From a virus, in IMG/VR virus record IMGVR_UViG_3300034107_001363, positions 1 to 64,000 of that record: a DNA stretch of 64,000 bases, one strand, 5' to 3'. Of the stretch, positions 7,094-64,000 are shown piece by piece. The notes beneath the pieces are model-generated. The model ran no database searches. It worked only from the letters and a program-made list of their open reading frames with translations, and was not told the origin of the DNA. Both the position numbers and the translations under genes were made by a program. The stretch's first letter is position 1. Each line of letters starts with the position of its first letter.

Positions 7094-7112
7094 AATCTTC
7101 AAAATAATCACC

Positions 7113-42600: not shown

Positions 42601-42736
42601 TAGTCCGTTGACCACTACCGTCTTGCCGACCTTGATGAACATTGTTGCCACCTATCCAGACGGGCGAACGGTTTCAGCATTTTTTGACCGGGCCGTTCTT
42701 AACTATAAATACCTTAACTCTTTTTTGATTCAGTGA
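39635..42736 (+). CDS. Large tail/adhesin protein with Ig-like repeats (1033 aa)
   Basis: An N-terminal region of about 430 residues, without recognised family, begins MAKALPDPSPERFPVLSFEGIGADLFFWEKV. It probably attaches to the particle. From about residue 445, PEAPVAMISADNLTVSGTTYSNGAVTVIETSTGTVVG and PFAPLASIDSGGTTVTGITEPGATVSI start bacterial Ig-like domains with the typical GTVTGxTEPGATV pattern. At least four such domains follow. The C-terminal 150 residues (FIASGAFPNNWLDGAPGGSYAHVN) may be a receptor-binding tip. Likely a long, flexible host-recognition protein. Confidence 0.7.
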   Translation: MAKALPDPSPERFPVLSFEGIGADLFFWEKVDLKMRRNRDAAIGTPHWDIVLYPNHKLVHKTPLDAAGQWYKFFYAADRENQDDYNWQFDGSSLTRTYVLPREAYLQNIGTLYGAEARAATVGVADEVFGLYGFTHEEVQRAPKELESLYVILTRVFQQITKTKQFFDNELGVKVLETTQIVARGSMAASSAAGLVVEINPVNQFYDIKVTQAVGTITLSAGVPVVTPLAYPFKRDSLPSDSSYQFPPLLRNVSIEAAWAYADSATAARAYDEAWYFKYELIEPAPGPYEARILRYLTGDPDELSTQFTVDTPPATPREVIGIAGWWFHASTKGNSAFAEAREEVIPSSIHERLEIDVNGIVALSNRLSTTVLEETPGFEEFSTRRSMIIGYEPRITRYGLYEIRIIELNTTGLYGGVKVPMGSVEGDGGSTGASIPGNTLKPEAPVAMISADNLTVSGTTYSNGAVTVIETSTGTVVGRVTADINGDYSLLLTAEYLDPVGLTVIVRYNGQTSYSTTLTTYDLTPFAPLASIDSGGTTVTGITEPGATVSILLKRAQVESIVTIGAATSTADVIVTVSGMDIIGSPLAINVPVTSGDSDVVVADAIKSSIGMTTAITDFYTVGGSGTTITLTEISPNGDDNTLNIAIDGTTNATGISDVPTSTDDTPGLVDSFSSTANGSGNFSYTFSPTLLNEDILEITATDNGGTSPVTTVRFDGDPPTITSATFLTATSITGVCTPLSIVRAYLVDGTEIGNNTAGFSGSFAITLSVSRIRGEVVRLVAEDPSDPANRSGVTTITAPDLNLAIPVLTYTSAGWIGTKPIGSTSIVYRIATLALAEVVVTPFANGNFAFNLPTYGGERYQVVARYASGDSDPVYINAQDIPLAPIKTAFIASGAFPNNWLDGAPGGSYAHVNGYYGAIYKSGYSNWLIDAVKPGDNGIFFYVPYQAGMTVQFTFPGQALNTVNHSPGGTNFGTDYRYKIGVSPLNTSPLTTTVLPTLMNIVATYPDGRTVSAFFDRAVLNYKYLNSFLIQ

Positions 42737-47280: not shown

Positions 47281-50200
47281 ATGGATTTTTCCAACCTGAC
47301 CCGTCTCGCTCCGCCTAAGTCGCTTTTCACCAAGGAACCAGAAGTTCCGGAAGTGCCAGAAGAAGAGCAAGAGGAACTCGACCTGAAGCGGCCGGAGACC
47401 TACTTGCTTTCATCGAAATGGGTCAATGCCAAGTCCGTTGAGGAGCGGGTGGCGTTGGTCGACAGGATTGCTTTGAAGCAACTGGAAGCACTGGAAGCTG
47501 ATAAGGAGGGCACCATCGAGATGGAGGTCTACCGCAAGGAAGCCGACGGCAGCCGGTCGGGCAAGCCGGTGCGCGACCAAGTAAAGACCTATGGTCCGGA
47601 TGGGTTATTGAGCCGGCAGTCGCTTGAGTTCCTTGAGCAAAGCCGCCAAACCCTTCTTCAGGCTGCTCAGGATCCGGACGGCGGGGTTCGCCTCAACGGT
47701 TTTTCCGGCAAGCTGGAGGCATCCAACTGGATTGACCAGGCGGTGCGTGGCAATCGGGCTCCGGTTGAAGACGATCCGTCTCTCAAGCCTTACGACGAAT
47801 TCATCAAGGACCAGTCGGTGTTGGCAACCGAAGAAACCAAGCCCGATTTCTCGTGGGAGAAATACACCAAGTGGAGCAACGACCGCCAGACCGACCCCTC
47901 CAAGCAGGTTGACCCAAAAGACGAAAAGCAAAAGAGGAAGTTTGATGAGCATGTCGGATGGGCGACCTACGACCCGACCAGCATGGGGCCCGACAAGGTG
48001 ATTGACACCTTCAACGGTCGGGTGACGGTCAATCCGACCAACTTGTTTGAGTATGACCAAGCTGAGCGGGAGCTTACCGAGCGCACTGATTTGACTCCTG
48101 CCGCCAAGAAGCTGGCTTGGATGGACTACGAAGCCAAAGTCAACCAGCACATCATGGACGGGGTCAACCTGTTTGCTTCGGCGGATGCTGGAGTGGAGTT
48201 TTTGTTTGGTGATTTTGTTTCTTCTGCGGAAGGCCTCGCAATGGAGGAAAAGATCAAAGGGTGGAGTGATGAGGACAAACAGGCGTTTCGGCAGGAGCAA
48301 GCGGCTAAATTCAGCGGACGGATGGGACTCGGAGCAAAGCCTTTGATCAACGAGCTGGAAGCTCATCTTGAGGCAGGAGGGTCCGGCATCGACTTTTTGC
48401 GCGCCAACAAAGAGCGCATGAGTCGGGATTCGTATGGTCCAGTTAGCGAGTTGGCCGCCAAGACCCGTGACGCGTTTCTGGCAACCGGTGGCGGAATCAA
48501 CTGGGCGATCGGTCATTACGTTAACCAAGCGCCCGGCGTTGGGACCATGTTTCGCATGGCGACGGGAACTGATGGCACCGAGTTTAGCCGTCCAGCCCAA
48601 GAGTGGGGAATCTTGGCCGAGGAAACAGCACAGGCCTATCGCAATCCTGAATATAATTTGCTGATCACTAAGGTCAACCGCCGTGACCTCACCTCATTGG
48701 GCGGACAGCTTGCTTCGTTTATCGGGTTGGGAAGCTTGGGGATAGCAGCAACTAAGGGAGCAACTTTGAGTGCGGCGAAAGCGGCTTTGGCCCAAGGCAC
48801 CGCGATGGCAACCGCGAGCACGGCGACACGGCTGGCGACGGCTACTGGCGGTCGTCTTGGCCCGAAGACAGCAGCTTTTTTGGTTGAGACGGCAACAGAC
48901 GCCACTGCTTATCTTGGTGCCATCCAAGCGTCAGGGATGTCGTTTGGCGGAACTCATGACGCGATTCTCAAAAAGACCGGCGACGCGAAGGAAGCCTACC
49001 GGGTGGCTTCGATTGACGCCGTGGCTGACGGACTTGGAGCACTCATTGCCACCTCGGTGATGAACCGGGTCGCACCCGGAGCGGAACGGTTGTTTGGTCT
49101 CCAACCTGGCAAGGCCGGTGGTTCGTTGGTTCAGCGCTTTCGCGCAACCCGGGCGAATACCGTTGGCGCCAGTGGTTTGGCAGACATCAAGAATAGCTTG
49201 AGCAAGCTTCATCCAAAACTTGGCAAGCAGTTTGCCAAGGACATGAAGGCTGCGATTCGCCACGAAGCTGCCCAAAAGGGTCTTCGTGGTTTTGGGGTGT
49301 TCAAGTCAATGGGAGCGGAAGGAATCGAGGAGTTCTCCGACGAAGCGATTTCCGACGTGATCAAAATGATTATCGATGACTCCAAAAGCTGGTCAGCCGG
49401 CGACTGGGGCAACATCCACGACAACTTCCGCGACTATTTGAAGGCCGGTGTGTTGGGGATGATCGGCGGGGCAGTGGGCGACGCCAAGGCAATGGCCTCA
49501 TCGGGCTGGAAAGCAACCGTTGGCAACGACGATAAACGCAAGGCTGAAATCAAGCGGGCCGTCACCGACCGGTGGGCATTTATCAAGGCCGATGTGGCAG
49601 GGGCAATGGCTGACAAGGACACCGTCAATCCGATTTACGACGGCACGGATCCGGATGCGTTGAAGCTGGCTGCGGTGCTGGCGTCAGACGATCCGAAGTT
49701 CGATTTGAAATACAAGTCGCGGATGCTGGTGGCGGCAGCCCGCAAGGGGGCGGCGAGGCCGTTCAGCGAAGCGGTCGAGAATGCTCAAGAAGATGGTCAG
49801 AAGCCGTCCAAGCGCACTTCGGCTGTCACTACTCCGGCGACGGGCTCAGCGAGTCCTGTGGTGCCTTCTGGGGGCTCTAGTATTGAAGAAGCGAGGCAAG
49901 CGGCGGTGCTTGGTGTTTCCAAAGCTCCCGCAGGCACCCGGGCCAGGCAGAAAATCGAGGTTGAGGAGTTGCCTGCGGTGACGTTGCCCAACGGCAGCAC
50001 CTTGACCCCGTTGAAAATTGGCGGGGTGGGAGCGGCTGGAGCGCGGCTTTTGGTAGCGGGGCCGGACGGTAGTGTCACGGTCAGCTACCTCGATGCGACC
50101 GAAGCTGCGGCGCTGGTAGGCACGACCGACAAGAAGCTGCGCAAGGAGTTCGAGCAGACCGCCAAGGACCAGCAGCAGGAACTGGCCGGAGGCAAATTCA

Positions 50201-53200
50201 GCGACGCATGGACCGAGGCTGAGAAAAAGACGGATAGCAAAGCGGCGCAGAAGCAGGCTGAAGTGAAGCCTGCTGACCGGCTCAAGGCCGCAGCGGCCGT
50301 GAAGCTCAAGCGCAAGCCGCCCGCCCTAGGCACTTCAAAAGAGCGCTTTGAAAAAGCCCAGCCGCCGAAAGAGGTAATCAAGAACAAGCCCGTCAATTCG
50401 ATGGGCGAGGCCACTCACAATTACAGGACCAAGAAAGGCATCCTTGAGTCGGTGACCACCATTCTCGGAAAGTCCCGCCGGTTCTTTTTTGACAAACAGA
50501 AAGCACTTGTTGCGGCAGTCAAGGGCACGGGGATGACCGTGCAGGAGAAGGCTGCCGAATGGGACGCCGATACCGAGGCTGGCACCTTGCTGCACGAGCA
50601 AGTGTCCGCGGTGTTGTCCGGCGGTAATCCGTCCAGCGATCCGTTGGTGACGAAAATTGTTGAACTGGTTCGGGAGAATGCAGCCGACGTTCCATTGTCG
50701 GAAGTGATCATCAGCAGCAAAACCTATGCGGGGTCCATCGACATCCTTGTGCCCCTGGCTGACGGAAGCTGGCTGTTGATGGACATCAAAACCCTCAAGG
50801 ACAACCCTCACGAGACCGGATCCAAGCCGTCTCTCCGTCATCGCGACAAGGGTTCCAAAATCGACGCATGGGCCATTCAGCTGCTGGCTTACAAGACGGC
50901 TCTTGAGGCTCGCGGCTTGGTGGTGAGCGAGATGAAAATCATCCCGGTTGACCGTGTCGGGCGGGAGGTTTTTGTCGACAGCGAGGGCAATGCGCTACTG
51001 GATGTGGCCCCTACTCCAGAGCAGGAGGAGTGGTTCAACGAAATTTTCCAGCAAGATGACACCGACCAAGGAGCCGACGATGTGGCAGTTGATGAGCAAG
51101 ATTCAGGTCCCAAGCCAAAAGGTGCTGGAGTGGATGCAGCTGCCAAAGTCGGAAGCGGTCAACAAGATGCAGGCAATCGGCCAGCTGGAGAAGAATCAGG
51201 CAGAGAGACTGCACCAGATGCTGCAGCCGAAGTAGCAAGGAGCAAAACTCCCTCCAAGGTGTTGCTACCAAAGGCAACCGAAAATGCTCCGCCACGTCCA
51301 CCACAAGAAGGTGGCCGGGAAGGGCGAGACGCACGTCAGGCGTGGGACGACCAGTATGCGTTCACCCACAACCCCGACGGCAGTCCGATTCAACCGACAC
51401 TCACAGAAGAAACGGTTCAAGCTGCTCAAAAAGCGGGCAAGCTCGCCACGGGAGATTCGCGGATTGATGCGTTAGGCGTGTTCGATCAAGCCGGGGTGGG
51501 AACAGCCGTTGAGCAGCTTCTCGATGCTGGGTGGAACTGGAACGGGCAGCGCATGGAGAACCCCGACGACCTGGCTGAAACCCCAGCCGTTGGGTTGCAG
51601 CGAATCCGTGCCGCCCGCGACAATGCTCAACAGGCACCTACACCGGCGGCACCTGCACCCGCAACCCCTTCAGTCTCCCCCCAAGCCCCCCTCGAACCCG
51701 CTGCCGAAGTAACCTACGAAGCGGTGAACGGCAACCGGCTTCCAGCCAAGGTTGTCGGGGTCAATCCCGATGGAACCTACCAAATAGATGTTCCAGGATT
51801 CGGCGAGTTGACCCGTGTCACTCGCAACCGGTTGGAACCAACCCCGACAACCAATGAAGAACAAAACCAAGTCGAAGTTCCGGTTGTGGAAGCTCCTGCT
51901 TCATCTGGCCTAACTGTTCCGAAGCTGGTGACCCGGTTACGCCTCTTGCACGGCATTGTGTTTGAGCCGAAAGCCAGAGACGCGGGTGCCCGTAACCTCA
52001 ACAACAAAGACCGCTATCCTGGCAATAACGACGTCTGGATGCAGGCAAACAACGGCGCGTTGTTCTTCCATCCGGACTTTCTCGAGAAGGTGTTGGCTAA
52101 CGACGAAATTTCCGACAAGGTGGGCTTCGTGGAAGCGACTGTTGAGGCGGTCCGCACTGGCACCGACATCCCGTTGATGCCCGAGCAAACCGAAGAGGTT
52201 ACGGTGGAAGAACAGACCGAGGAAGAGCAGGAAGCTGCCGCGGTGAAGGAGACCGAGGAAGTCAAAGCAGAGCTGGAGCAAGAGGAGACCAAGCTGGAAC
52301 AACTTCCGGACGATTCGACTGTCGATGAGGTTCGCGAGGTGGCACCGCAGCTGGTGGATACCGCGACGTTGGCTGCCCTCAATGCTTCCGACCGCGAGTC
52401 GTTCCTGACTTGGCTCAAGGGATTCTCCAAAGGCCTCTCTCGTTTCGGCGACAAGATTTGGCGTGCTGCCAAGGGGATGGCAGTTGCACTGGCCGGCATC
52501 TCGGTAGCTCCTCAAGCGACCAACCATGAAATTGCTTCGGTGGCTCAGGTTTCCCCTGAACTGGTTGAGGTGGTTAGCGGTAGTTTGCCTAACTGGGCAA
52601 CCCCTTCCGACGTCTCCATTGAGGCGGAGTTTTCCGATGGCACCCTGCCGCTGCCTCTCAACGAAACTGACAATGTGGCGGCGCTGGATGTCAGCACCTT
52701 GCCTCAACCGGCTTTGGTCAGCATCGATGTGCCTCAGCCTCGTCAGGTCATCAAAGATGTGCAGGCGCCGAAGGTTGGCAGCGTGGAAGCGACCCAGTCG
52801 CTTATCGATGAAATGAACCTTGGCAACGTAGGCACGACTCTTCCCGGCGGTTTGGCCAAGTGGTGGCTGAAGCAAGGCAAGAATCCGGCGGTCAATGCGG
52901 CAGCTGCCTTGCTGGGAGAACACGAGAAAGGTTCATCCCGAATCAAGTCGATGCTGGTGAGCATGGGGGTTTCTGAAAATCCCTCGTCCTTCCCGTGGTG
53001 CAGCGCTTTTCTTTCGTGGAGCCTGAACCAAGCTGGACTCAAGACCAAGACCATGTCGTCACGGGCTTTTCTTGGTCTCGGCCAGAAAACCACTGCTCCT
53101 GCCTATGGTGACGTGGTGGTTCTGTGGAATGATAATCCAGCTACCGGCGGCAAGGATGGCTGGGGTGGACACACTGGGTTTTACCTCGGCGAGACCGATA

Positions 53201-56200
53201 CTCATGTGATTGTGCTCAGTGGCAATTCGGGCGACTCGGTAGATGTTTCGGCTTTTGTCAAAACCCGTGTTCTTGGCTATCGAGCTTTTGGCAACACACC
53301 GGGATTGCTCGCTTCTCGCGGACGGCCGAAGCGCCGGGCTCGTTCCCGTCGGTCCTTGCCGCCGTTGAAGGGATTGGCGGGGGGGCCTGCTCAGCCGGCT
53401 CCAGCGGTTCGCAAGATCAGGAACTTGTCTGTCACCGAAGCGGAACTGACGGAGGAATCGGCGGAAGGCAAGTGGCAGCAAAAGGGGAACGACTACCTTT
53501 TCACCCCGGCCAAGGGCAAGATGGTGCGGCTTGCTCCGGGCGAAGTAGTGCAAATCGCCGGTAGCGACGACTTGTTGTTTCTCTACTCGGTCGGCGACGG
53601 GGTGTGGCAGTTCAAGCGGATCAATCCGGAAAAGCTCTCCGAGATGTGGAGCGACGGCAATACTCGGGTCAAGGTTGGCCATTTGCAGCAGGAATGGGCG
53701 AGGACTCGGTTGGACCAGACTGCGGCCGATGTCGAAGGCTTGCTCGACGACTTGCTTGGCTCGGACGCCGCACCCAAAGCCAAGCTGATCACCGGGCTGC
53801 GCAAGCTGCTGCGGAAGGTAATGGCGGAAGTTGCTCCTAATGCTGATCCAGTTGCTCCTGATGGTGATCCGTTTGTCGAGGTGAAACTGGAAGGCGACGA
53901 TTTCATCCAGGCTCGCATTGAAACGGTGCTGGTTGAAAGTTCCCAAGAAACCAAAGAGAAACTAGGAAAGGAGTTGGCTAGGCTTGAAGCGAACCCGGAG
54001 TTGCAGCAACTAAAGGATGAAATCAAAAGGATTCTCGGGAGTTTGCCTAAGCATGATGACCCAGGCCGCATGGCGGCTGAAGCTCCGCTAAAACCACTTC
54101 AGGATCGCTTGAAAGCCCTTGAGCTTGAAATCAATAAAGTCAAAACCGCCATCAGTCGGACGATTAAGCGTATTGAAACTGAAGCTGATTATTACGGTGA
54201 AGCTGCAGTTAAGACCATGGAGGTGGACTTGGTCAATTTGGTGGCCAAGCTGCGCCGCGAGCTGGGAGGGGTAATGCTGGCCAACGACGAGACTCGCGCC
54301 CATGCTGCGCTCGAGGTGGCGCGCCTGCTGGCCAAGTGGGTCGACGAAGAGCAAATCCACTTCCTTACTTTTGACGAAAAGCGTTTCCCGCGACTTGAGG
54401 TGGAGGGCATGGTCGGAGCTATTTTCAAAGACGTGAAGCATCCGTTCCGGCCAATGCTGCTGGAGACGCTGGACGAGCGTTTTCCAGACCGTTCGCTGGA
54501 TGAGGCCGATGACACTTTCCTCGACGACGACAACGGGTTTTACACCCTTGGCGCCGAGTTGCTGCGGAAGATGCTTCAAAAACAACTCACTGGCACGACT
54601 TCGGAGGATGCGGTTGCTCAAGCAAACTACTTGGCTGCTGCAATGGCTGCTGACTTGCGCGCTGGCAAGATGACCAGCAAGGGCAAGCCGTCGCTGTTAC
54701 AGACCATTGGGGCTTTGCTGCGGCGCTACAGTGAGCGGATGCGTTCGATCCTTGGGATGCGTTGGGCCGTCGGCCAGTTGCCGGAAGGTCAATATCGTCT
54801 GTTCCACCGCCTGATGCAGGACTACCGCAAGGCCAACTTGCGCGGCGACGTCGATCTGGCGCGCGAGAAGCTGGTGATTGCCACTGCCACCCGCTTGCAG
54901 CTGCACAGTTCGGACATGGAGGAGCGGCTCAACAAGATCGGCCGCAAGCACACCGAGGGCCTTGAGCAGATCAAGCGTTTGCCCAAGGTGCTGCTGGACA
55001 TCGGTCAGGAGGATTTCCTTGTCCTTAATGCCGAGGGTGAGCTGACGTTGCACGAAGAGGTTGAGAAGTTCATCAATCGCAATCCTGACAAGTTCAGCCA
55101 CTCGCTCATTTACGACGCCTTAGAAGCGATGCAGTCGGAAGATGGTTACCAAGCCGCTTGGATGGACGCCGCGCTTGCTAGGAATGCCTTGGAGGCCCGG
55201 GAATTGGCCTTCGACTTTAACCCCGCCGAGTTGTTTGGTGATTCGTCGACTTTTGACCCTGAATCTGCCGTCGGCAAGATCATCGCTGGTTCGCCGCAAG
55301 CTGCTTACAATCCGCTGGTGCGGATGCGCCGCGACGAGCTGGCCGCGATGGACAAGCAAATCGAAGACCGTGCGGCTGGCTTGGTGGTGTCGGAACTCGA
55401 ACGAGTTGAGAATCTTGATCCTTCCGATAAGAAAGATCAGCGGGGTTTGATCAAGTTGGCGGGAGCGCTTGGCGTGATGCCGGCTTCACTCCCTTCGTCC
55501 AATGAAGATTTCGCCAGGCTAAAGGAACAAATTGCTGTTCACATGGAGGTGATGTTCGAGCAGGGCGGTCCTCGTCCGTGGGAAGGCAATTACGACCCAG
55601 CTTCTGGCCGCTTGGATGGCGCGGTGTATGGGGGGCCGTTACCGTCCGGTTCGTGGTCGATGGGGGACGAAACAGCTGAGGCTCAGCCGTCTATTTTCAG
55701 GCAAGAGCAGGAAGCTTTGGCCGCGTTGCGCGAGCAGCGGTCCCGCAAAGCCGACGACCTACTTATCCTGCAAGGGGTGCTTCAACGCGACGCCAACGGC
55801 CAGATTGTTTCCGGACCGACCACCGAGGAAGTGCCTGAAACCGACCGCACTGGGGCTTTGTGGCAACTTAACAGGGAACAACGCCGGAACGCCGAAGTGC
55901 TGCGGATCCGTGACCGGATGCGTCAAGCCGAGAAGGACGTCGACATGGTGGAAGCCGAGCGGCGCTACGCTCAACTGGTCGACTACCTCGAAGCGCTGGA
56001 TGAATACAATCGACGGGTCACCCACATGAAGCGGCGGGCAATCGGCGACTTTTACGACTGGGAGAAATCTGACTATGGCCTGTTTTGGCAGGACACTCGG
56101 GTCGACAGCGAGAAAGCCGAGGATCCCCGTATGTGGGATAAGAGCGACCCGGCGCCGGTAGCTATGACCGCTAGCGACGTGTTTGGTTACCAAGCGCTGC

Positions 56201-59200
56201 CGCCCGAAGCGACAACCGGGGAAGGGATTAAGCCGGGCTTCGGCCATCCCCGCAATCCACCGAAAGACGCCGACCCCAAGGAAGCCGAACTGTTCCGCGC
56301 TTACGACCGCGCGACCAAGAGCAACGCGGCGTTCCGAGGCCGGGAATGGCGCAAGGACTTCACGCTGGCCCAGTGGATGGAGGAGCTTCCACTCAATTTC
56401 GACCAGCAACTTTACACCGCAACTGGCGGCTTTCGCTTCCCATCGATCGAAAAGGACGAGTTTGGCCGCTTGAGTTACGAGACCTCCGAGCAGGCGTTTC
56501 CTAGTTTTGACGGCTTTGACGAGCTGTATGCGATTCATCGAATGGGAGAGGAGAACGAGGAACTGAGCCAGCAGCAGCGCAACCTGCGGGATGCCCCTTT
56601 GTGGATCGATCAGTTTATCGGTTACGTCGACAAGGCTGAACGCTGGCTGGCCCACGTCCAACTTCGGGCTGGCTTGGATGAGTTTGACACTGGTCCTGAC
56701 ATTGTGCGCGAGATGAACGGTAAGCCGACGCTGGCGGCGCAAAGCCAGTTGCTGCTCGATCCGGTGCTAGAGGCGTTTAGCGACAGGCTTGCCGCACTCA
56801 AGAAGGATTTCCTATCCAAGATGGGGCCTCACTTGGACTACTCCGCGAAGGAGAACTTCCGCGACAGTTTTGCTCGTGAACGGGGCAAGCTGGCTCCCCT
56901 GACTGACGAAACTCAGATGGCTCAGGCGTTCTTGAAGATGATCAAGGCCAAGGAGTCCTTCAGCCCGTTTAAAGTGGCGATGGAAGCTACCCAGCAGGCC
57001 AACACTGCGGTCAAATTGGTTCGACGGGCTCTCCATGAGTTTAGCAACTTGCGTTGGCAGGAGAACTTGGAGAAGGAAATGATGAAGACGGTGCGGGACT
57101 TGTCCTACACCCCTGAGCATTCCGAGTTTTTGCGGTTGCGCGATACTACCCTCGACCCGGCGACCATCCGATTCCTTGAGTTCAATCTCAAATACATCTC
57201 GCAGTTCCCCGATTCTTACCACGTCGGGGCGGGTTACGCCTACGAGTTCCTCGAGCAGCACCGCAAGGTCAACAAGGGTGGCGGCGGGGAGCCATTCATG
57301 AAGGTCTACTTGGACAGCCAAAAGCGCGCGCTGGCCAAGGGTCTTCCAGTTGAAATTAACGAAGAGGCCCAGGTACTGACGATTGACGACACGGGGCCGG
57401 ATGGACAGGCCTATAACGTGTTTGCTTCAGGCGAACAGGGGGCTGACTATAACGCTTTCACCAACGAACGGATTGGCAATGGCTGGCAGACCCAACAGGA
57501 GAAGGCGACCAAGGATGCCAACATCGCATTTCAGGCCCGCAAGATCCGGCTGTCGACTTGGCTGACTCTTATCGGTTTCCGGATTAGCGAGAGCACGGGC
57601 AACGTCGAGGACGCTAAGAGCTTTCGCAGTGACGTCGTGCGCAAGATGCTGACCGGTGAGGGTGACTCGCTGGAGTTGGTTGGTCGCGGAATTCGAGGAA
57701 TGTTTACCGCCGCTTTGTTCAACGACGAGTTGCATTCCACTTTGGTTGAGCAGTTTTTGGAAGCTAATCCGCACTGGAAGGATTTGCCGTCGCTGGATGA
57801 AGAACTGAATCAAGAAACGACATCCCGACGTGTTGCTGGAGGATTTGATGCCGAGGCTTTTGCGGTGGATTTGCTTGAGTTCAAGGAGGGTTTCGAGCGA
57901 GAAGTGCTGCAATCGGCGCTGGTCAACGACAAGGACCAGATGGCGACGGCCTTGGCTACCGTGCTGCGGGTCGGCACAGCAGGCATCAAGGACATCGTGA
58001 TTGATCCTGAGTTTAGCGGTCTGAGTGCTGCCTACCGGCTGAAGCAGGACTACCAAGCGTTCGGCAAGGCCCATCAGGAGAAATACGGCGTGGACATCCT
58101 CAACGCCGACGAGCAGGTGTTTTCCAACGTCACTGCCGAGGAAGCGACTTTGGTCGCTCAAGTGATCCAGCAGCAGATGCTCAACGGCGACTTGCGGCCA
58201 TACGACGGCCGGCTGGTCACTGGCGACTTATGGCTGGCAACCAACCCTGTGTTGGCTTTGCTAGCGGGGTCTCAACCCGGCTCGCGCTGGGTGCCCGATC
58301 TGGTCAAGGAAGGTGAGGAAGAGACCGGTAAATGGGTGCCGGTGCAGACGTTGATCATTAGCCCTGACGAGAAGGCGATGGCGGTTGCTGGCGCGGATGT
58401 CGGGTTCCGGGTCTTTCCCGGCAGCGACGGGATGCCTGACGTCATCTGGGCCCCGCTCAAGCCAACTGGCCAGCAGGACGCCCAGTTTGCCATTCAGCAG
58501 TTGCTGCAGGTTTACGGGGAGGTGCCGGCGATTAAGAGCAACTTGCGCGAACTGGCACGGATTTTCCGCGAGACGCTGGCCCCCGGCTTCCTTGCCAACG
58601 ATGTGATGGCTGCGTTGGACGATAAGATGGTCCGGCTTCGTAGCGATGTCAGTAACCGCAATTTGTTGGGCACGACCACTACCGGGAATTCCAGCACTTG
58701 GCAATCAGTGGCGCTAGATTTGGGAGTGACCGAGTTTTTGGGAGCGACTTGGGAAAGCGAGTTGGCCAAAATGGGGGTCGATTTCAAGTCTCCGGCTTTT
58801 GAGGAAATCCGCCAGCTGATCAAGTCAAGCAAGCACGGGCCGAGCCGCCATTGGAAAATGCTCCACAACGCTCTTAAAGCGCAGAAGTTGACTGCTACCA
58901 TGGGCGAGCTTAGCGAAAGCCTGCGCGCCCGCTTTGCCGACCGGATTTCTGAGTTGTCGAAGGAAGAATCCGAGCTGTTCGAGCAACTGCTGGCCGACCA
59001 CTACTATTCCGCTTCCCGGTCGCTGGCTGAGTCGTCGATCACCGAGGCCGAGATCAAGAGCGAGGGCTGGGGTGCCGACGTGCTGCTCATTTCGCTGATG
59101 CTTAGCGATCCTGCCTACAAGCGGGCTTTTGACGTGTCCTATGTCGGCGACGAGTCGGAAAATCCAGCGGGTGACGACAGTCTTTCGCCGGTGATGCGTG

Positions 59201-62200
59201 ATGCCCTTCAGCGGGCCATCAGCCAGCTCCGCAGCGTGGCTCAGGACTACGAGCAGGCGGACGAGGGCCGGACGGCTAACGATGCCGTGCAGGCCTTTGG
59301 CGAGAGCGATCTGGTAGATGACCAGCAAGTGGCTGATGAAGACGACCAGGCTGGGGCACAACGGGTGGAGAGCAGCACCGAAGAGGAATCCCCTCGTGCA
59401 CGAGGCAAGGGCAACCTACAAGCCGACCCGCTTGCTCTTCTTAAGTTGCTAGCTCCGAACCGAATGACCTCGCCGCGCCGTGACGAAGGGGTGATTCCTC
59501 CGTCTGACGCCTTGTTGTTTAACTTGCTGGAAAACGTTTTTGTGGCGGCCAACAAGTGGAATGATCGGCTGAACTACCCTGAGTCTCCGCTCCGCAAGCC
59601 GTCTGTCCGAAAAATGATCAAGAAGTCGACCAATGCCAACAAGGGTTTGGCGGCGCCGATCTACGAGGAAACTGGCAAGCCACAGAATGCTCGTGCTCGT
59701 GCGAGATCAATGTATGTCGGGAGCATCCTAAATCTTGGCAATCCGGGCTCGCTCGGCAAGACCCGCATCTCGGCGGCGATGAATCGGACCCGCCACGCAA
59801 CGATCAGTGCCGCGTTGCTGGGCAGCGACGAGTATACCCGCGAGGAGATCGACAGCGAGATTGGGATGCGCGCCGACAAGGCGGAGAAGCGCGGGATGGA
59901 CTACGGCATGATCGAGCAGAAACTGGTGCTCCATCCTTACATGATGGACCGACTGGCTTTGATGCTGCCAGGCTTGGAAGAACAGCGCGACAAAGCCCGA
60001 CAGGCGTTGAACAGCCTTGACAGCCGGCTTGACTATCTCGACGGGACCTCCACTGCAGCCGAGAAGTTCTTGCGAGAAACACGGTCCAGCACGCTGATGC
60101 TCGACCGAGTTCATGCCGCTTTGCGTGTAGAGAAGCAGCAGCTTGAGGTTGACATGGCTGGCTACGAGCCGTCCCAAGCACAGGAAATTGATTCAATTAA
60201 ACGCGAGATTGCTCGAATTGATGGCTTGTTAGCCAAGAAGGATTTGGGCGAGTTCATCGAGTTGGCTGACCTACATGGGGATTTTGTGGCAAACCACTTG
60301 GCTGATGCCGTGGTGGAGATGGCGGAAGAGTTTGGCTATCAAGCCGATCGGTTGGCCGCTACTTCTGTTCGTCTGGTGGAAAAAAGCCTGTTGGCCCGTC
60401 TTAAGCTGATTCATGGAGGACAAGGGGCTCGGGTTGAAAGCGGGATGGTTCCTGCAATGACCCAAACGATTGAGGCGATGCGCTTCCTGTTGCGCCAGCG
60501 GGATGCTGTTCTTGAGACCGATCCTTTTGGGCAGGTGGCTTCAATCAATCAGGAGCTGGAGGAGAAGATTGCCGAATTTGGCGAACTAGCCGGACAGCTG
60601 GAAGGAGCGGTTCGGGCCAATCTGAATGCTAGTCTGAAGGAACTAGGGCTCAAACCGCGTTCCGGTCAGGCGTTCCCGTCGTTTAAATTTGGCCCAGCGG
60701 AAGGCTTGGATGACAACCAGCTTGAAGGAATGTCGCGCCGCTTGTCTGCTCGCTCAATCCTTCGCCAGGCTAAAACTGGTGAAGCGCTGCTTGAGGGCAC
60801 TCTTGACTGGGCAACCCGTGAATTCCGCGACGGCATTGGCAACTTGCTCAATAAGCGAGGAGGAGGGCAGAAGCCGAAGACTGCCAAAGACAAGGAGGCC
60901 AAGGAGCAGGCCATTGGTTTGCTTCACAACTTCTTGCGGGGGATGACCGGCAAGAGCAAGACCGATGTGGTAGCCGCGCTTAACGCGCTGGTCAGCCGGG
61001 TTGAGGAGGCCGCAGCTCCAGAACAGGTCAATATTATCAACCTGACGGTCAATCCTGATTGGGAGAGCGTCAAGGAAGCGGCACGGAAACAAGCTTCGCC
61101 ATTGTTTGCGATGCTGCGGATGCTGGCGCTAAGTACGGAAGAAGGTCAGGCTTTGCTCGACAACAACACCACCACTGCTGGCGAATTGAAACGTCAAGCC
61201 AAGGCCCGTAACCATATCACGGAAGCTGCTCGTGAAAAAAGCCGGCTATTGAAGCAAAAGTCGATGATGCTTGGCGGTGACGGCACTTACTACGTTGGAC
61301 GCTATAGCCATGTCAGTCCACACCTTAACCGGGCGGGCGATCCTTACGTGGTGCCGGTGGCTATGACCTTGGCTGCACCACAAGTAGATCCCAACTCGCG
61401 GGTCCAGTCTTTGACTCAAGAACAGGTCAGCAAACAGAAGCAGTCTGTTGAAGAACAGATTCGTCGCGAGTTTTATATCAACCGTTCGGCATTGAATCGA
61501 ACTTTGCAGATTTTGGCGGTCGACCGGATTGACGCTCACTACAAGCTGCTTCGTGGCGAACTGGACAACTACAGCACTTTCGATCCATCGTTGATGGTAA
61601 ACGAGGCAATCGATCGGGTTAGGATTGCCGACGCGGTGATCAAGACTCGCCACGAGCAGGCTTTGTCTGACCAGGAGCAAGCTGCCAGCCGTGGGATGAC
61701 CCAGGAGTCGCTTGGGATGTTGCTGGAAGACCACAGCGAGTTTTTTACTGGCGAGCCGGTGTTGCCAGCTCATCTACAGAAGCACGGCACGGTGGCCGGA
61801 ATGAAGCGGCGCAGCGAACTGCGGGCCAAGGTCAACCGGCTTCCCGCTAGCTACGAGGCCCGTAACCGGCTTTACGGCACACTTTACGATAACGGCACTC
61901 CGATTGTACTGATGGCTCAGGATGCTCGTCAGCGGCTGATGGACGCTTTTCCTGAGACTATTACCCCGCGCAACATCAACCGGACGGTCAACAACATGGT
62001 GTTGCGTGCGCTGGCCAAAACCCCGGCTGCTCGCGGCAAGCCGGCGTTTATGATCCACACTTACGCTGACCTGAGCGGCAAGTTTACCGGAGACTTTGAG
62101 CTGACCAATGGCAAAGATTTGAATTTGGAGCAAGCTGGCAAGGCGTTTTCGGAACGGATCAGCGGTCACCTGCAGCAGTGGCTTGACGGCAAGCGGGGCA

Positions 62201-64000
62201 AGGAGGTTGCCCTGACTGGTGCGACCTCATCCCGCACGCTTGGCTTGTTCAAATCGTTGGTCGAGCAGCTGGTGCATGTCTATGGCGATCCTCGGATGCG
62301 CAACCAAAAGGGAGAACTCAACAACACTGGCAAGAAGGTGGAAGCGTTGCTTCGTCAGATCGACGGGAATGGGTTCTCTGCCGACATTCAGGTAGCCAAG
62401 TTTGACCTGATTGGCACTTTTGCTGAAGCTTTTGCTGAGACCGAAGCGGAGCTGGTGATGCGCGACTTGGTGGCCGGTCTGGTTACTCATAACGACGTAT
62501 TCAGACTGACCACGATGAAAATACTTCATCATTCGTCGGCTCGTAATCGGATTCGATTCAACAAGACTCACGTCGCTCGCGAGACTGCGATGTATTTGCA
62601 AGCTTACTTGGAGCGCGGCTTTGACGGCGAGAGCGGACGCGAGGGCCGGCAGACTGCCCACGAGGAGCAGCGAGCCCGTCTTTCTACGGCGTCTAAGAAG
62701 ATCAGTAGCATTGGCCAAGACAAGACGCTTGACCAGTCGTTGGCTTACGTGGTGGCCCAGCTGGACGGCTTGCAACACGCTAACGGCTTAGACCCTACTC
62801 AGGCGCTAGGTGAGTGGTATGAGGCATTCAAAGCTGGCTACCGACAGCTGAAAGAACTCGACAAGCAGCAAGGCAAGAAATGGAACAGTTTTGAGAGGTT
62901 CTTTGTGGCCAACCATGTCAATCTGATCCGCGATTTGCCGCTGGCCAACAAGCTGGCGGAGATCATGAACGCATCGCGGGCGATGGACGACTTCGGCTTG
63001 GTTGATCCGACTAGCACCAAAAACCACGATGAATATCGCAACGACGAATCGCTGCGGATCATTGCTCAGCTTAAGGAGGCTTTGCTTAAGGCCTCCACTG
63101 ACCGGGCAGGCACAGAACATTACGCTGCCGAGATGGGAGCCGTGCTGCTGGACGCCTACAATGCGACCGCTTTGGCTTTGGCGGTGATGTCAAAGGTTAG
63201 CGGTCCTCGGATCGACACCGGGATAGAGCAAGAAGACGACGCTTCGATTGCTTGGCAGAATCGGGAGATTAAGCCGTGGCGGCGGACTTACGGCGCGGTG
63301 CCGATTCGATTGGCTTACGCTACCAACCCGGGGATGCTCGAAAAAGTTCAAGGCCGCGAGGGCAAGTGGATCCCCGATCCGGCCGACACGGTAGCAATTA
63401 CCGACAGCTCGTTCTTCGGCGGCCTTGGCAAGAAGGAGACCAACCGTCGCTCGCTGGAAGTTTTGCGGCCGATGTCGGTGAACGGCTTGTCGGCTCCGCT
63501 GGCAATTTTGGACGACGCGATTTACCGGTTGAACGTGGCTCCCAATTACGAGGTACTGCGGCGCTTGACGGGCAAGGTGGAAACCCAGTCTGGGGTGCCC
63601 GAGGTTGGCGATTCGATGATGCTCAACGCCGCCAACCGCAACAATCGCGGGATTTACGACCAGGACAGCAACTGGCGTTTCGCTATGGCGGCAGTGGCCA
63701 GCGAGATTGAAAGCAACTTGTTCAACGACGCGCGGTCAGGGGTTCTCGACACAGCTTTTGCCGAGGCGACCAGTTGGCTTTCTTCTGCTTTCATCGTTCG
63801 CTCGTTGTCATCGGTCCTTCAGCTTTGGGACCAAACGGCGTCTGCTACTGTTGGCTTTGTTTTGAAGAAAGTGCTAACCGGTCAGCCTCAGGTGGCTGGA
63901 GATTTCATTTACGCGGTGGCTCATCAAATTGGCAGCCTTTGGAGCGGGGAGGACGGTTTCAATAGGCGTTTGTCGCGGTTTACCTACAACATTTCGCCTT
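47281..64000 (+). CDS. Giant virion polyvalent protein, incomplete at right edge (more than 5,573 aa)
   Basis: One frame runs from ATG 47281 to the edge without a stop. I read every codon. Order: a helical N-terminus; a hydrophobic Gly/Ala stretch near residues 470-530; a PD-(D/E)XK nuclease domain with H1105, D1154, D1168-x-K1170 and Q1200-x3-Y1204; acidic/Pro linkers; a TIGR02594/CHAP-like peptidoglycan hydrolase with C1907 (PWCSAF), H1964 (GGHTGFYLG) and N1982; then over 3,500 residues mainly of long helices with coiled-coil parts near residues 2270-2300 and 4300-4320. It probably enters the host with the DNA, opening the wall and acting on DNA. No single-subunit or double-psi-barrel RNA polymerase motif was seen. 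Confidence 0.85.
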   Translation, partial: MDFSNLTRLAPPKSLFTKEPEVPEVPEEEQEELDLKRPETYLLSSKWVNAKSVEERVALVDRIALKQLEALEADKEGTIEMEVYRKEADGSRSGKPVRDQVKTYGPDGLLSRQSLEFLEQSRQTLLQAAQDPDGGVRLNGFSGKLEASNWIDQAVRGNRAPVEDDPSLKPYDEFIKDQSVLATEETKPDFSWEKYTKWSNDRQTDPSKQVDPKDEKQKRKFDEHVGWATYDPTSMGPDKVIDTFNGRVTVNPTNLFEYDQAERELTERTDLTPAAKKLAWMDYEAKVNQHIMDGVNLFASADAGVEFLFGDFVSSAEGLAMEEKIKGWSDEDKQAFRQEQAAKFSGRMGLGAKPLINELEAHLEAGGSGIDFLRANKERMSRDSYGPVSELAAKTRDAFLATGGGINWAIGHYVNQAPGVGTMFRMATGTDGTEFSRPAQEWGILAEETAQAYRNPEYNLLITKVNRRDLTSLGGQLASFIGLGSLGIAATKGATLSAAKAALAQGTAMATASTATRLATATGGRLGPKTAAFLVETATDATAYLGAIQASGMSFGGTHDAILKKTGDAKEAYRVASIDAVADGLGALIATSVMNRVAPGAERLFGLQPGKAGGSLVQRFRATRANTVGASGLADIKNSLSKLHPKLGKQFAKDMKAAIRHEAAQKGLRGFGVFKSMGAEGIEEFSDEAISDVIKMIIDDSKSWSAGDWGNIHDNFRDYLKAGVLGMIGGAVGDAKAMASSGWKATVGNDDKRKAEIKRAVTDRWAFIKADVAGAMADKDTVNPIYDGTDPDALKLAAVLASDDPKFDLKYKSRMLVAAARKGAARPFSEAVENAQEDGQKPSKRTSAVTTPATGSASPVVPSGGSSIEEARQAAVLGVSKAPAGTRARQKIEVEELPAVTLPNGSTLTPLKIGGVGAAGARLLVAGPDGSVTVSYLDATEAAALVGTTDKKLRKEFEQTAKDQQQELAGGKFSDAWTEAEKKTDSKAAQKQAEVKPADRLKAAAAVKLKRKPPALGTSKERFEKAQPPKEVIKNKPVNSMGEATHNYRTKKGILESVTTILGKSRRFFFDKQKALVAAVKGTGMTVQEKAAEWDADTEAGTLLHEQVSAVLSGGNPSSDPLVTKIVELVRENAADVPLSEVIISSKTYAGSIDILVPLADGSWLLMDIKTLKDNPHETGSKPSLRHRDKGSKIDAWAIQLLAYKTALEARGLVVSEMKIIPVDRVGREVFVDSEGNALLDVAPTPEQEEWFNEIFQQDDTDQGADDVAVDEQDSGPKPKGAGVDAAAKVGSGQQDAGNRPAGEESGRETAPDAAAEVARSKTPSKVLLPKATENAPPRPPQEGGREGRDARQAWDDQYAFTHNPDGSPIQPTLTEETVQAAQKAGKLATGDSRIDALGVFDQAGVGTAVEQLLDAGWNWNGQRMENPDDLAETPAVGLQRIRAARDNAQQAPTPAAPAPATPSVSPQAPLEPAAEVTYEAVNGNRLPAKVVGVNPDGTYQIDVPGFGELTRVTRNRLEPTPTTNEEQNQVEVPVVEAPASSGLTVPKLVTRLRLLHGIVFEPKARDAGARNLNNKDRYPGNNDVWMQANNGALFFHPDFLEKVLANDEISDKVGFVEATVEAVRTGTDIPLMPEQTEEVTVEEQTEEEQEAAAVKETEEVKAELEQEETKLEQLPDDSTVDEVREVAPQLVDTATLAALNASDRESFLTWLKGFSKGLSRFGDKIWRAAKGMAVALAGISVAPQATNHEIASVAQVSPELVEVVSGSLPNWATPSDVSIEAEFSDGTLPLPLNETDNVAALDVSTLPQPALVSIDVPQPRQVIKDVQAPKVGSVEATQSLIDEMNLGNVGTTLPGGLAKWWLKQGKNPAVNAAAALLGEHEKGSSRIKSMLVSMGVSENPSSFPWCSAFLSWSLNQAGLKTKTMSSRAFLGLGQKTTAPAYGDVVVLWNDNPATGGKDGWGGHTGFYLGETDTHVIVLSGNSGDSVDVSAFVKTRVLGYRAFGNTPGLLASRGRPKRRARSRRSLPPLKGLAGGPAQPAPAVRKIRNLSVTEAELTEESAEGKWQQKGNDYLFTPAKGKMVRLAPGEVVQIAGSDDLLFLYSVGDGVWQFKRINPEKLSEMWSDGNTRVKVGHLQQEWARTRLDQTAADVEGLLDDLLGSDAAPKAKLITGLRKLLRKVMAEVAPNADPVAPDGDPFVEVKLEGDDFIQARIETVLVESSQETKEKLGKELARLEANPELQQLKDEIKRILGSLPKHDDPGRMAAEAPLKPLQDRLKALELEINKVKTAISRTIKRIETEADYYGEAAVKTMEVDLVNLVAKLRRELGGVMLANDETRAHAALEVARLLAKWVDEEQIHFLTFDEKRFPRLEVEGMVGAIFKDVKHPFRPMLLETLDERFPDRSLDEADDTFLDDDNGFYTLGAELLRKMLQKQLTGTTSEDAVAQANYLAAAMAADLRAGKMTSKGKPSLLQTIGALLRRYSERMRSILGMRWAVGQLPEGQYRLFHRLMQDYRKANLRGDVDLAREKLVIATATRLQLHSSDMEERLNKIGRKHTEGLEQIKRLPKVLLDIGQEDFLVLNAEGELTLHEEVEKFINRNPDKFSHSLIYDALEAMQSEDGYQAAWMDAALARNALEARELAFDFNPAELFGDSSTFDPESAVGKIIAGSPQAAYNPLVRMRRDELAAMDKQIEDRAAGLVVSELERVENLDPSDKKDQRGLIKLAGALGVMPASLPSSNEDFARLKEQIAVHMEVMFEQGGPRPWEGNYDPASGRLDGAVYGGPLPSGSWSMGDETAEAQPSIFRQEQEALAALREQRSRKADDLLILQGVLQRDANGQIVSGPTTEEVPETDRTGALWQLNREQRRNAEVLRIRDRMRQAEKDVDMVEAERRYAQLVDYLEALDEYNRRVTHMKRRAIGDFYDWEKSDYGLFWQDTRVDSEKAEDPRMWDKSDPAPVAMTASDVFGYQALPPEATTGEGIKPGFGHPRNPPKDADPKEAELFRAYDRATKSNAAFRGREWRKDFTLAQWMEELPLNFDQQLYTATGGFRFPSIEKDEFGRLSYETSEQAFPSFDGFDELYAIHRMGEENEELSQQQRNLRDAPLWIDQFIGYVDKAERWLAHVQLRAGLDEFDTGPDIVREMNGKPTLAAQSQLLLDPVLEAFSDRLAALKKDFLSKMGPHLDYSAKENFRDSFARERGKLAPLTDETQMAQAFLKMIKAKESFSPFKVAMEATQQANTAVKLVRRALHEFSNLRWQENLEKEMMKTVRDLSYTPEHSEFLRLRDTTLDPATIRFLEFNLKYISQFPDSYHVGAGYAYEFLEQHRKVNKGGGGEPFMKVYLDSQKRALAKGLPVEINEEAQVLTIDDTGPDGQAYNVFASGEQGADYNAFTNERIGNGWQTQQEKATKDANIAFQARKIRLSTWLTLIGFRISESTGNVEDAKSFRSDVVRKMLTGEGDSLELVGRGIRGMFTAALFNDELHSTLVEQFLEANPHWKDLPSLDEELNQETTSRRVAGGFDAEAFAVDLLEFKEGFEREVLQSALVNDKDQMATALATVLRVGTAGIKDIVIDPEFSGLSAAYRLKQDYQAFGKAHQEKYGVDILNADEQVFSNVTAEEATLVAQVIQQQMLNGDLRPYDGRLVTGDLWLATNPVLALLAGSQPGSRWVPDLVKEGEEETGKWVPVQTLIISPDEKAMAVAGADVGFRVFPGSDGMPDVIWAPLKPTGQQDAQFAIQQLLQVYGEVPAIKSNLRELARIFRETLAPGFLANDVMAALDDKMVRLRSDVSNRNLLGTTTTGNSSTWQSVALDLGVTEFLGATWESELAKMGVDFKSPAFEEIRQLIKSSKHGPSRHWKMLHNALKAQKLTATMGELSESLRARFADRISELSKEESELFEQLLADHYYSASRSLAESSITEAEIKSEGWGADVLLISLMLSDPAYKRAFDVSYVGDESENPAGDDSLSPVMRDALQRAISQLRSVAQDYEQADEGRTANDAVQAFGESDLVDDQQVADEDDQAGAQRVESSTEEESPRARGKGNLQADPLALLKLLAPNRMTSPRRDEGVIPPSDALLFNLLENVFVAANKWNDRLNYPESPLRKPSVRKMIKKSTNANKGLAAPIYEETGKPQNARARARSMYVGSILNLGNPGSLGKTRISAAMNRTRHATISAALLGSDEYTREEIDSEIGMRADKAEKRGMDYGMIEQKLVLHPYMMDRLALMLPGLEEQRDKARQALNSLDSRLDYLDGTSTAAEKFLRETRSSTLMLDRVHAALRVEKQQLEVDMAGYEPSQAQEIDSIKREIARIDGLLAKKDLGEFIELADLHGDFVANHLADAVVEMAEEFGYQADRLAATSVRLVEKSLLARLKLIHGGQGARVESGMVPAMTQTIEAMRFLLRQRDAVLETDPFGQVASINQELEEKIAEFGELAGQLEGAVRANLNASLKELGLKPRSGQAFPSFKFGPAEGLDDNQLEGMSRRLSARSILRQAKTGEALLEGTLDWATREFRDGIGNLLNKRGGGQKPKTAKDKEAKEQAIGLLHNFLRGMTGKSKTDVVAALNALVSRVEEAAAPEQVNIINLTVNPDWESVKEAARKQASPLFAMLRMLALSTEEGQALLDNNTTTAGELKRQAKARNHITEAAREKSRLLKQKSMMLGGDGTYYVGRYSHVSPHLNRAGDPYVVPVAMTLAAPQVDPNSRVQSLTQEQVSKQKQSVEEQIRREFYINRSALNRTLQILAVDRIDAHYKLLRGELDNYSTFDPSLMVNEAIDRVRIADAVIKTRHEQALSDQEQAASRGMTQESLGMLLEDHSEFFTGEPVLPAHLQKHGTVAGMKRRSELRAKVNRLPASYEARNRLYGTLYDNGTPIVLMAQDARQRLMDAFPETITPRNINRTVNNMVLRALAKTPAARGKPAFMIHTYADLSGKFTGDFELTNGKDLNLEQAGKAFSERISGHLQQWLDGKRGKEVALTGATSSRTLGLFKSLVEQLVHVYGDPRMRNQKGELNNTGKKVEALLRQIDGNGFSADIQVAKFDLIGTFAEAFAETEAELVMRDLVAGLVTHNDVFRLTTMKILHHSSARNRIRFNKTHVARETAMYLQAYLERGFDGESGREGRQTAHEEQRARLSTASKKISSIGQDKTLDQSLAYVVAQLDGLQHANGLDPTQALGEWYEAFKAGYRQLKELDKQQGKKWNSFERFFVANHVNLIRDLPLANKLAEIMNASRAMDDFGLVDPTSTKNHDEYRNDESLRIIAQLKEALLKASTDRAGTEHYAAEMGAVLLDAYNATALALAVMSKVSGPRIDTGIEQEDDASIAWQNREIKPWRRTYGAVPIRLAYATNPGMLEKVQGREGKWIPDPADTVAITDSSFFGGLGKKETNRRSLEVLRPMSVNGLSAPLAILDDAIYRLNVAPNYEVLRRLTGKVETQSGVPEVGDSMMLNAANRNNRGIYDQDSNWRFAMAAVASEIESNLFNDARSGVLDTAFAEATSWLSSAFIVRSLSSVLQLWDQTASATVGFVLKKVLTGQPQVAGDFIYAVAHQIGSLWSGEDGFNRRLSRFTYNISP

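What the first reader, a model, noticed from the sequence alone, without database searches (positions are those of the whole stretch)
50580..50960. Complete Cas4/RecB-type nuclease motif set inside the giant protein
Residues about 1105-1204 contain, in order, an H (GTLLHEQ), D (YAGSIDIL), D-x-K (LLMDIKT) and Q-x3-Y (QLLAYKTAL). This is the full signature of RecB/Cas4 PD-(D/E)XK nucleases. A nuclease fused to an ejected wall-opening protein could attack host DNA, protect or process the incoming phage DNA, or counter a defence system at entry.
Basis: partly seen in the sequence, partly recalled or inferred. Interest (0 to 1): 0.75.

Follow-up and report, generated by a model that had tools for sequence, protein, structure and literature searches.

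The report
Exonuclease domain inside ejected phage giant
A bacterial virus carries, inside one enormous protein that is probably injected into the host together with its DNA, a DNA-cutting enzyme domain of the RecB/MGME1 kind next to a cell-wall-cutting domain; similar enzymes sit inside the injected proteins of crAss-like gut phages, so it is a new arrangement of a known kind.

Summary
Confirmed and enlarged. A loose four-motif pattern proves little (161 of 1000 shuffles). Profile evidence is strong: PHROG 298 'exonuclease' E=3e-14, and a profile of 36 relatives gives 54.6 bits against 2.4 for the best of 200 shuffles. It is not Cas4: no cysteine in the domain. The whole protein holds one cysteine, C1907, in its CHAP wall-hydrolase domain. 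Near-absence of cysteine is a published trait of giant proteins ejected through phage tails. crAss001 gp47, found in virions by others, carries the same nuclease family. Best reading: an entry-delivered exonuclease acting on DNA ends or single strands. Activity, virion location and substrate are untested. PD-(D/E)XK domains in large crAss-phage proteins are already in print, so this is a new variant of a known kind.

The parts
47281..64000 (+). Giant ORF, 5977 aa in all; it runs on past the window to base 65214 of the 73,295-base record
   Evidence: open without a stop from ATG 47281 to the stop at record base 65214; starts 18 bases after the preceding ORF's stop (47262); no clear Shine-Dalgarno seen upstream
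50332..51021 (+). RecB/MGME1-type PD-(D/E)XK nuclease domain, residues 1018-1247
   Evidence: PHROG 298 E=3.1e-14 over residues 1018-1231; profile envelope 1018-1247; predicted structure mean pLDDT 82.6, pTM 0.80 for residues 1021-1250
50593..50595 (+). H1105, aligned with MGME1 His180 (metal ligand)
   Evidence: role of His180 from passages of PMC6237815
50701..50703 (+).
50740..50742 (+). D1154, aligned with MGME1 Asp238
   Evidence: invariant in the 37 rows of A2
50782..50790 (+). D1168-I-K1170, aligned with MGME1 Asp251-Trp-Lys253
   Evidence: invariant D and K in the 37 rows of A2
50878..50892 (+). Q1200-x3-Y1204 motif
   Evidence: both invariant in the 37 rows of A2
50161..50340 (+). Linker before the domain, residues 961-1020, poor in order-promoting residues (0.13 against 0.30 for the whole protein)
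51061..51240 (+). Linker after the domain, residues 1261-1320, poor in order-promoting residues (0.08)
52885..53283 (+). CHAP / TIGR02594 peptidoglycan hydrolase-type domain, residues about 1869-2001
   Evidence: TIGR02594 E=8.4e-19, 68.2 bits, just under its cut-off of 70.55; PHROG 1259 3.5e-20; Pfam CHAP 1.5e-4, under cut-off
52999..53001 (+). C1907, the only cysteine of the 5977-aa protein, in FPWCSAF of the CHAP domain

Best explanation
Residues about 1018-1247 of a 5977-aa phage protein form a discrete RecB-superfamily PD-(D/E)XK nuclease domain, nearest among solved structures to human MGME1, set between disordered linkers and about 620 residues ahead of a CHAP-type cell-wall hydrolase. 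Computed here: family, predicted fold, full active-site set, linkers, near-total loss of cysteine. Inferred: the protein is packed in the virion and passes, partly unfolded, through the tail at entry; the CHAP part opens the wall; the nuclease part refolds in the cell and, with two metal ions, trims single-stranded DNA or free DNA ends. The most likely substrate is the ends or single-stranded tails of the incoming linear genome, or of pieces made by restriction, preparing them for circularisation or recombination, because MGME1-type enzymes prefer single-stranded DNA and the newly arrived linear genome is the main free-ended DNA present then.
For: PHROG 298 'exonuclease' E=3.1e-14. Profile of 36 relatives: 54.6 bits, best shuffle of 200 2.4 bits. 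Alignment A2: G, A, G, D, D, K, T, Q, Y invariant in 37 rows, H and E in at least 90%. Profile A2 against PDB sequences: MGME1 5e-15, AdnAB 8.5e-5. Predicted structure pLDDT 82.6, pTM 0.80; Foldseek best MGME1 1.3e-5; VIA-align MGME1 Z 13.9, rmsd 3.1 over 171 residues, then AddA 12.0, Cas4 10.6, RecE 9.3, RecB 8.3, lambda exonuclease 7.5. Ejection: 1 cysteine in 5977 residues against 46 expected at the rate of 16 late-strand ORFs (59 in 7609; P 3e-19) or 82 at the rate of 13 other ORFs (49 in 3580); N4-like virion RNA polymerases have none, which authors tie to passage through tail and periplasm (PMC2784036, PMC3715699, PMC3915230, passages). Virion-detected crAss001 gp47 has the same nuclease family (E=1e-6) and 1 cysteine in 2341 residues. 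End processing: the standalone relative in Xanthomonas phage Rb1 lies beside a single-strand annealing protein.
Against: No activity, virion or expression data. No close homologue of the giant protein, so selection on the active site cannot be measured. The fold is a prediction from an alignment at 15-28% identity; the loop at residues 1181-1188 has pLDDT under 50. By single-sequence tblastn the crAss proteins are not significant (E 0.8-1). crAss gp47 and cr85_1 have D in place of the H, so that context may be less active or inactive. The phage has a separate PD-(D/E)XK exonuclease gene (6248-7111), so end processing need not rest on this domain. The P values treat residues as independent, and the ORFs used as yardstick are mechanical ORFs.
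Confidence: 0.6

Rival explanations
1. Injected attack nuclease: the domain is delivered to degrade host DNA, plasmids or rival phage DNA at the start of infection, as proposed for DNase domains of polyvalent proteins.
For: Iyer 2017 (PMC5512222, passages) proposes that ParB-like DNase domains of polyvalent proteins act in this way; here too a nuclease shares a chain with a wall hydrolase.
Against: The nearest solved relative, MGME1, is an exonuclease preferring single-stranded DNA (PMC6237815, passages); an intact circular chromosome offers no free end. Nothing here shows how the phage's own ends would be spared.
Confidence: 0.2
2. Counter-defence at entry: the domain destroys a nucleic acid intermediate of a host defence, such as prespacers, RecBCD products or an R-loop.
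For: Delivery before any phage gene is expressed would suit it; RecB/Cas4-type nucleases handle such substrates (one search lists Cas4/Cas1/Cas2 and AddAB structures as fold relatives).
Against: No defence-related neighbour or specific signal was seen; no padloc search was made.
Confidence: 0.1
3. Virion-side role: the domain works in the infected cell late, or in the capsid, trimming DNA ends during packaging or maturation, and ejection is incidental.
For: Flavobacterium phage FpV4 has a standalone relative between structural genes (profile E 8.7e-18); Yutin 2021 reports a PD-(D/E)XK nuclease in the structural block of crAss-like phages (PMC7886860, passage).
Against: Does not explain the loss of cysteine or the fusion to a wall hydrolase.
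Confidence: 0.15
4. Relic or DNA-binding scaffold: the fold is kept for DNA binding or folding of the giant chain, without catalysis.
For: In crAss001 gp47, cr85_1 and the Bajarodcaudo protein the histidine is replaced by D.
Against: All five MGME1 active-site residues are present in the window protein, and cr1_1 also keeps H, D, DxK and Q.
Confidence: 0.1

Closest known systems
PHROG 298 phage exonucleases (standalone, e.g. Xanthomonas phage Rb1, mycobacteriophage Optimus gp109, Flavobacterium phage FpV4 gp24)
   Same: Same order of motifs from the SVTxIL strand to QxxAY
   Different: Those are 208 to 292 aa single-domain proteins; here the domain is a cassette in a 5977-aa chain
Human MGME1 (mitochondrial genome maintenance exonuclease 1)
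   Same: Best fold match (Z 13.9), best PDB sequence match (5e-15), all five active-site residues aligned
   Different: About 15% identity over the aligned part; mitochondrial single-domain enzyme
Crassvirales virion cargo protein gp47 of crAss001 and its relatives
   Same: PD-(D/E)XK domain of the same family inside a very large, almost cysteine-free protein; gp47 is detected in virions (PMC10172136, passages)
   Different: Only the nuclease part is alike by BLASTP (cr85_1 and Bajarodcaudo); gp47 is called RNA-polymerase-associated; no CHAP domain was listed for cr85_1 or the Bajarodcaudo protein by PHROG or Pfam; H replaced by D
Polyvalent proteins (Iyer et al. 2017, PMC5512222)
   Same: Several unlike enzyme activities in one phage chain, including a peptidoglycan-cutting domain
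   Different: The terms RecB, REase, Cas4 and crAss do not occur in its main text; the named nucleases in the passages seen are ParB-like and RadC; no zincin peptidase motif (HExxH) in this protein
N4-like virion RNA polymerases
   Same: Giant, ejected, free of cysteine (PMC2784036, PMC3715699, PMC3915230, passages)
   Different: Those are polymerases; no polymerase match was found here
Cas4
   Same: RecB-type fold (Cas4/Cas1/Cas2 structure Z 10.6)
   Different: No cysteines in the domain; NCBIfam Cas4 model far below cut-off

Membership tests
RecB/MGME1-type PD-(D/E)XK nuclease superfamily | Alpha-beta core of the fold | tested here: met
   Predicted structure pLDDT 82.6, pTM 0.80; MGME1 Z 13.9, AddA 12.0, RecE 9.3, RecB 8.3, lambda exonuclease 7.5. 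A prediction, not a solved structure.
RecB/MGME1-type PD-(D/E)XK nuclease superfamily | Active site H, E, D, D-x-K | tested here: met
   H1105, E1141, D1154, D1168, K1170, aligned with MGME1 His180, Glu223, Asp238, Asp251, Lys253 (residue roles)
RecB/MGME1-type PD-(D/E)XK nuclease superfamily | Q-x3-Y motif of the RecB branch | tested here: met
   Q1200, Y1204, invariant in the 37 rows of A2
RecB/MGME1-type PD-(D/E)XK nuclease superfamily | Match to curated or clustered family models | tested here: met
   PHROG 298 3.1e-14. Pfam PDDEXK_1 only 16.4 bits, under its cut-off of 22, and not listed at E 0.01 for the 230-aa piece
RecB/MGME1-type PD-(D/E)XK nuclease superfamily | Metal-dependent DNA cleavage | not testable with these tools
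   needs purified protein
Cas4 | Four cysteines binding an iron-sulphur cluster | tested here: not met
   No cysteine in the domain; the only one in the protein is C1907. That four cysteines define Cas4 is from the abstract of PMC4176176 in the listing.
Cas4 | Score above the curated Cas4 model cut-off | tested here: not met
   TIGR00372 14.4 bits, cut-off 65
Cas4 | Linkage to cas1/cas2 | not tested
   no dedicated search was made
Polyvalent protein | Two or more unlike enzyme domains in one phage polypeptide | tested here: met
   Nuclease plus CHAP/TIGR02594
Polyvalent protein | Delivered with the DNA at infection | tested here: inconclusive
   Cysteine depletion and position at the end of the plus-strand gene block fit; no virion data
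Polyvalent protein | Known LPD or zincin peptidase domains | tested here: inconclusive
   None listed by Pfam on the pieces scanned; residues 3269-4268 and the C-terminal 1737 residues included; no HExxH
Crassvirales RNA-polymerase-associated cargo protein | Similarity beyond the nuclease domain | tested here: not met
   BLASTP of the whole giant against gp46, gp47, gp49 of crAss001, cr85_1 and Bajarodcaudo giants: only the nuclease stretch of two of them at E below 0.1
Crassvirales RNA-polymerase-associated cargo protein | Polymerase DxDxD motif | tested here: not met
   No DxDxD in the 5977 residues. In crAss phages the motif belongs to the polymerase protein, not necessarily to gp47.

The most novel reading that the evidence does not exclude
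One polypeptide serves as a disulphide-proof entry machine: purged of every cysteine except the nucleophile of its wall hydrolase, it opens the wall and brings in a ready-made MGME1-type exonuclease that acts on DNA before any phage gene is expressed; and such nuclease cassettes have been built into giant ejected proteins more than once (here and in Crassvirales).
Probability: 0.45. Interest if true: 0.7.

Novelty: new variant of a known kind. Interest (0 to 1): 0.5.

Why it matters
If true, phages inject a pre-made DNA-end nuclease with the genome, a step of infection that current models of ejection (channel proteins and virion RNA polymerase) do not include. It also gives crAss001 gp47, a virion protein of a much studied gut phage that is filed as RNA-polymerase-associated, a testable second activity. 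The single remaining cysteine, placed in the wall hydrolase, suggests a simple sequence test for ejected giant proteins.

Tried and rejected
Cas4 identity: rejected (no cysteines, model far under cut-off). Chance motif match: rejected on the profile result, although the loose pattern alone would not have excluded it (161 of 1000 shuffles).

Close relatives of the giant protein: none found with the nuclease domain in viral contigs and phages at E 0.01, with the C-terminal 869 residues in viral contigs, the C-terminal 1737 residues in phages, residues 1-1040 and a later piece in genome contigs, or residues 2269-4268 in viral contigs. These scans use exact short peptides, so distant relatives would be missed. 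The first 2600 residues against phages gave 322 records; all of the 40 rows listed were the CHAP part, the other 282 were not viewed. Against plasmids they gave 133 records; of the 10 rows listed, 9 were the CHAP part and one, a Picosynechococcus plasmid protein of 223 aa, was the nuclease part. Twenty of the 74 records reached by the tail-fibre gene were searched for the nuclease and for residues 1801-3300: no match; the closest ones (L003-L006) end before or do not hold the giant gene. The alignment-based scan A1 and the Rb1 exonuclease scan found nothing. No RNA polymerase motif (DxDxD) or Walker A was found in the giant protein. VIA-align lists are no evidence about families not listed. 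No tree was built, so separate acquisition in Crassvirales and here is inferred only from the lack of similarity outside the domain.

The P values for cysteine use mechanical ORFs chosen by eye (16 on the late strand, 13 others) as yardstick; some may not be genes.

Full report
What was checked. The ORF from 47281 is open to record base 65214 and encodes 5977 residues. The record is a virus record of 73,295 bases.

Is it more than chance? A stricter family pattern occurs once in the protein and in 0 of 1000 shuffles. A profile built from 36 relatives without the window sequence scores 54.6 bits at residues 1036-1211, against 2.4 bits for the best of 200 shuffles (all). That profile is partly circular, as 35 of its members were fetched by a DNA pattern modelled on the core of this domain. 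The independent PHROG 298 model 'exonuclease' matches residues 1018-1231 at E=3.1e-14. Weaker matches: Pfam PDDEXK_1 E=0.0094, under its cut-off, Cas4 TIGR00372 E=0.025, under its cut-off.

What it is. None of the 80 frames is longer than 565 codons, so those relatives look like standalone nucleases. Thirty-five of them, one crAss-like sequence (L083) and the window domain form alignment A2: G1101, A1150, G1151, D1154, D1168, K1170, T1171, Q1200 and Y1204 are invariant, and H1105 and E1141 are kept in at least 90% of rows. Of the 37 members, 27 match Pfam PDDEXK_1 and 4 Pfam Cas4 at E 0.01; the window piece itself matches none there. The A2 profile finds human MGME1 among PDB sequences at 5e-15 and mycobacterial AdnAB at 8.5e-5 to 1.8e-4. 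The predicted structure (pLDDT 82.6, pTM 0.80) matches MGME1 best by Foldseek (1.3e-5) and by VIA-align (Z 13.9, rmsd 3.1 over 171 residues), followed by AddA, Cas4, RecE, RecB and lambda exonuclease. MGME1 residues His180, Glu223, Asp238, Asp251 and Lys253, whose roles were read in passages of PMC6237815, align with H1105, E1141, D1154, D1168 and K1170. So the domain has the complete active site of MGME1.

The nearest single sequence found is a 223-aa protein of a Picosynechococcus plasmid, 28% identical over 198 columns, encoded right after a DNA/RNA helicase gene. It shares with the window domain a longer stretch between D-x-K-T and Q. Its relatives include RecB-like exonucleases of mycobacteriophages and an exonuclease of Flavobacterium phage FpV4 that lies among structural genes.

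It is not Cas4. The domain has no cysteine, and the Cas4 model is far under its cut-off. The phage has a separate PD-(D/E)XK gene at 6248-7111 on the minus strand with cysteines near its C-terminus.

The setting. The domain lies between stretches poor in order-promoting residues (0.13 before and 0.08 after, whole protein 0.30), like a cassette on a string. About 620 residues further on is a CHAP/TIGR02594 domain. The protein is encoded at the end of a plus-strand block with a tail-fibre-family protein (PHROG 17104) and an ORF with a Walker A motif that may be the terminase.

One cysteine. The 5977 residues hold a single cysteine, C1907, inside FPWCSAF of the CHAP domain; that this is the catalytic nucleophile is recalled knowledge of CHAP enzymes, not a result of a call. 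At the rate of 16 late-strand ORFs (59 in 7609) 46 would be expected, at the rate of 13 other ORFs (49 in 3580) 82. Several of those late ORFs also have none or one, so low cysteine is partly a trait of the structural block. N4-like virion RNA polymerases have no cysteine, and three papers tie this to passage through the tail or periplasm (PMC2784036, PMC3715699, PMC3915230, passages read). In crAss001, gp47 has 1 in 2341, gp49 1 in 1349 and gp46 0 in 534. This is the best evidence here that the giant protein is ejected; it is indirect.

The crAss parallel. By single-sequence tblastn two crAss-like giant proteins gave only E 0.8 and 1, but they match PHROG 298 themselves at 9.5e-9 and 2.2e-10, as does crAss001 gp47 at 1e-6. 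A profile of the 35 standalone relatives alone finds the window protein (4.5e-17), the Bajarodcaudo protein (4e-7), gp47 (3e-6) and cr85_1 (2e-5), and the 2007-aa protein of cr1_1 (2.6e-15). The predicted structure of the crAss-like domain L083 (pLDDT 74.1, pTM 0.69) matches AddA (Z 10.7), AdnA/AdnB and MGME1 (10.2). gp47, cr85_1 and the Bajarodcaudo protein have D where the window domain has H; cr1_1 keeps H. gp47 was detected in virions by mass spectrometry and is placed in the capsid cargo zone by PMC10172136, in whose main text the word nuclease does not occur (passages). That some crAss-like phages carry a PD-(D/E)XK domain in a large transcription-associated protein is in print (PMC7886860, passage; repeated in PMC10136315, passages). 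In the structure library of viral proteins, 88 entries match at E 0.001 or better; among the 50 shown, 10 have a suffix that I take from recall to mark pieces of long proteins, several of them crAss-like and others from Podoviridae sp. ctz6O13 and Virus NIOZ-UU157. These were not followed up.

How it most likely works. Ejection, refolding and action on free ends or single strands of the incoming DNA is the best-supported story, at about 0.6 for the whole and clearly more for the identity of the domain. MGME1 prefers single-stranded DNA (PMC6237815, passage), and the Rb1 relative lies beside a single-strand annealing protein; both point to end processing rather than to attack on intact host DNA. 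The substrate is inference.

Novelty. The family, and its presence in large crAss-phage proteins, are known. The library lacks most subscription papers, so this is no proof of absence.

Noticed in passing
window 52999-53001: C1907 is the only cysteine in a 5977-residue protein and lies in the CHAP domain motif FPWCSAF.
   Followed up: partly
window 6248-7111, minus strand: Separate PD-(D/E)XK exonuclease gene (PHROG 2139 E=2e-25) with a GTAVH motif and cysteines near the C-terminus, more Cas4-like than the domain under study.
   Followed up: partly
L204, L078, L079 (crAss001 gp47, cr85_1 and Bajarodcaudo giants): Each giant crAss-like protein has a single cysteine, within four residues of its C-terminus, preceded by a conserved stretch ending in an A-x-K/R-C type tail.
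   Followed up: no
window 39635-42736: Protein with four bacterial Ig-like domains (Pfam Big_6, E=1e-24).
   Followed up: no
window 31179-33584: Weak GDSL-type lipase/acylhydrolase match (E=5e-4, under cut-off) in a structural-block protein.
   Followed up: no
window 36309-38324: Tail-fibre-like protein: PHROG 17104 (5e-51) plus a weak laminin-G/concanavalin match; 74 relatives in viral contigs, four of them with 57-74% identity.
   Followed up: partly
window 23043-24788: ORF with a Walker A motif (GCSSSGKS at residue 86) but no PHROG match; may be the large terminase. None of the main capsid or packaging genes of this phage matched PHROGs.
   Followed up: no
L207 (Flavobacterium phage FpV4 gp24): Standalone nuclease of the same family lies among structural genes, between a peptidase and a virion structural protein.
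   Followed up: no
window 2179-3159, minus strand: DUF932 protein (Pfam PF06067, E=1e-16; PHROG 1221).
   Followed up: no
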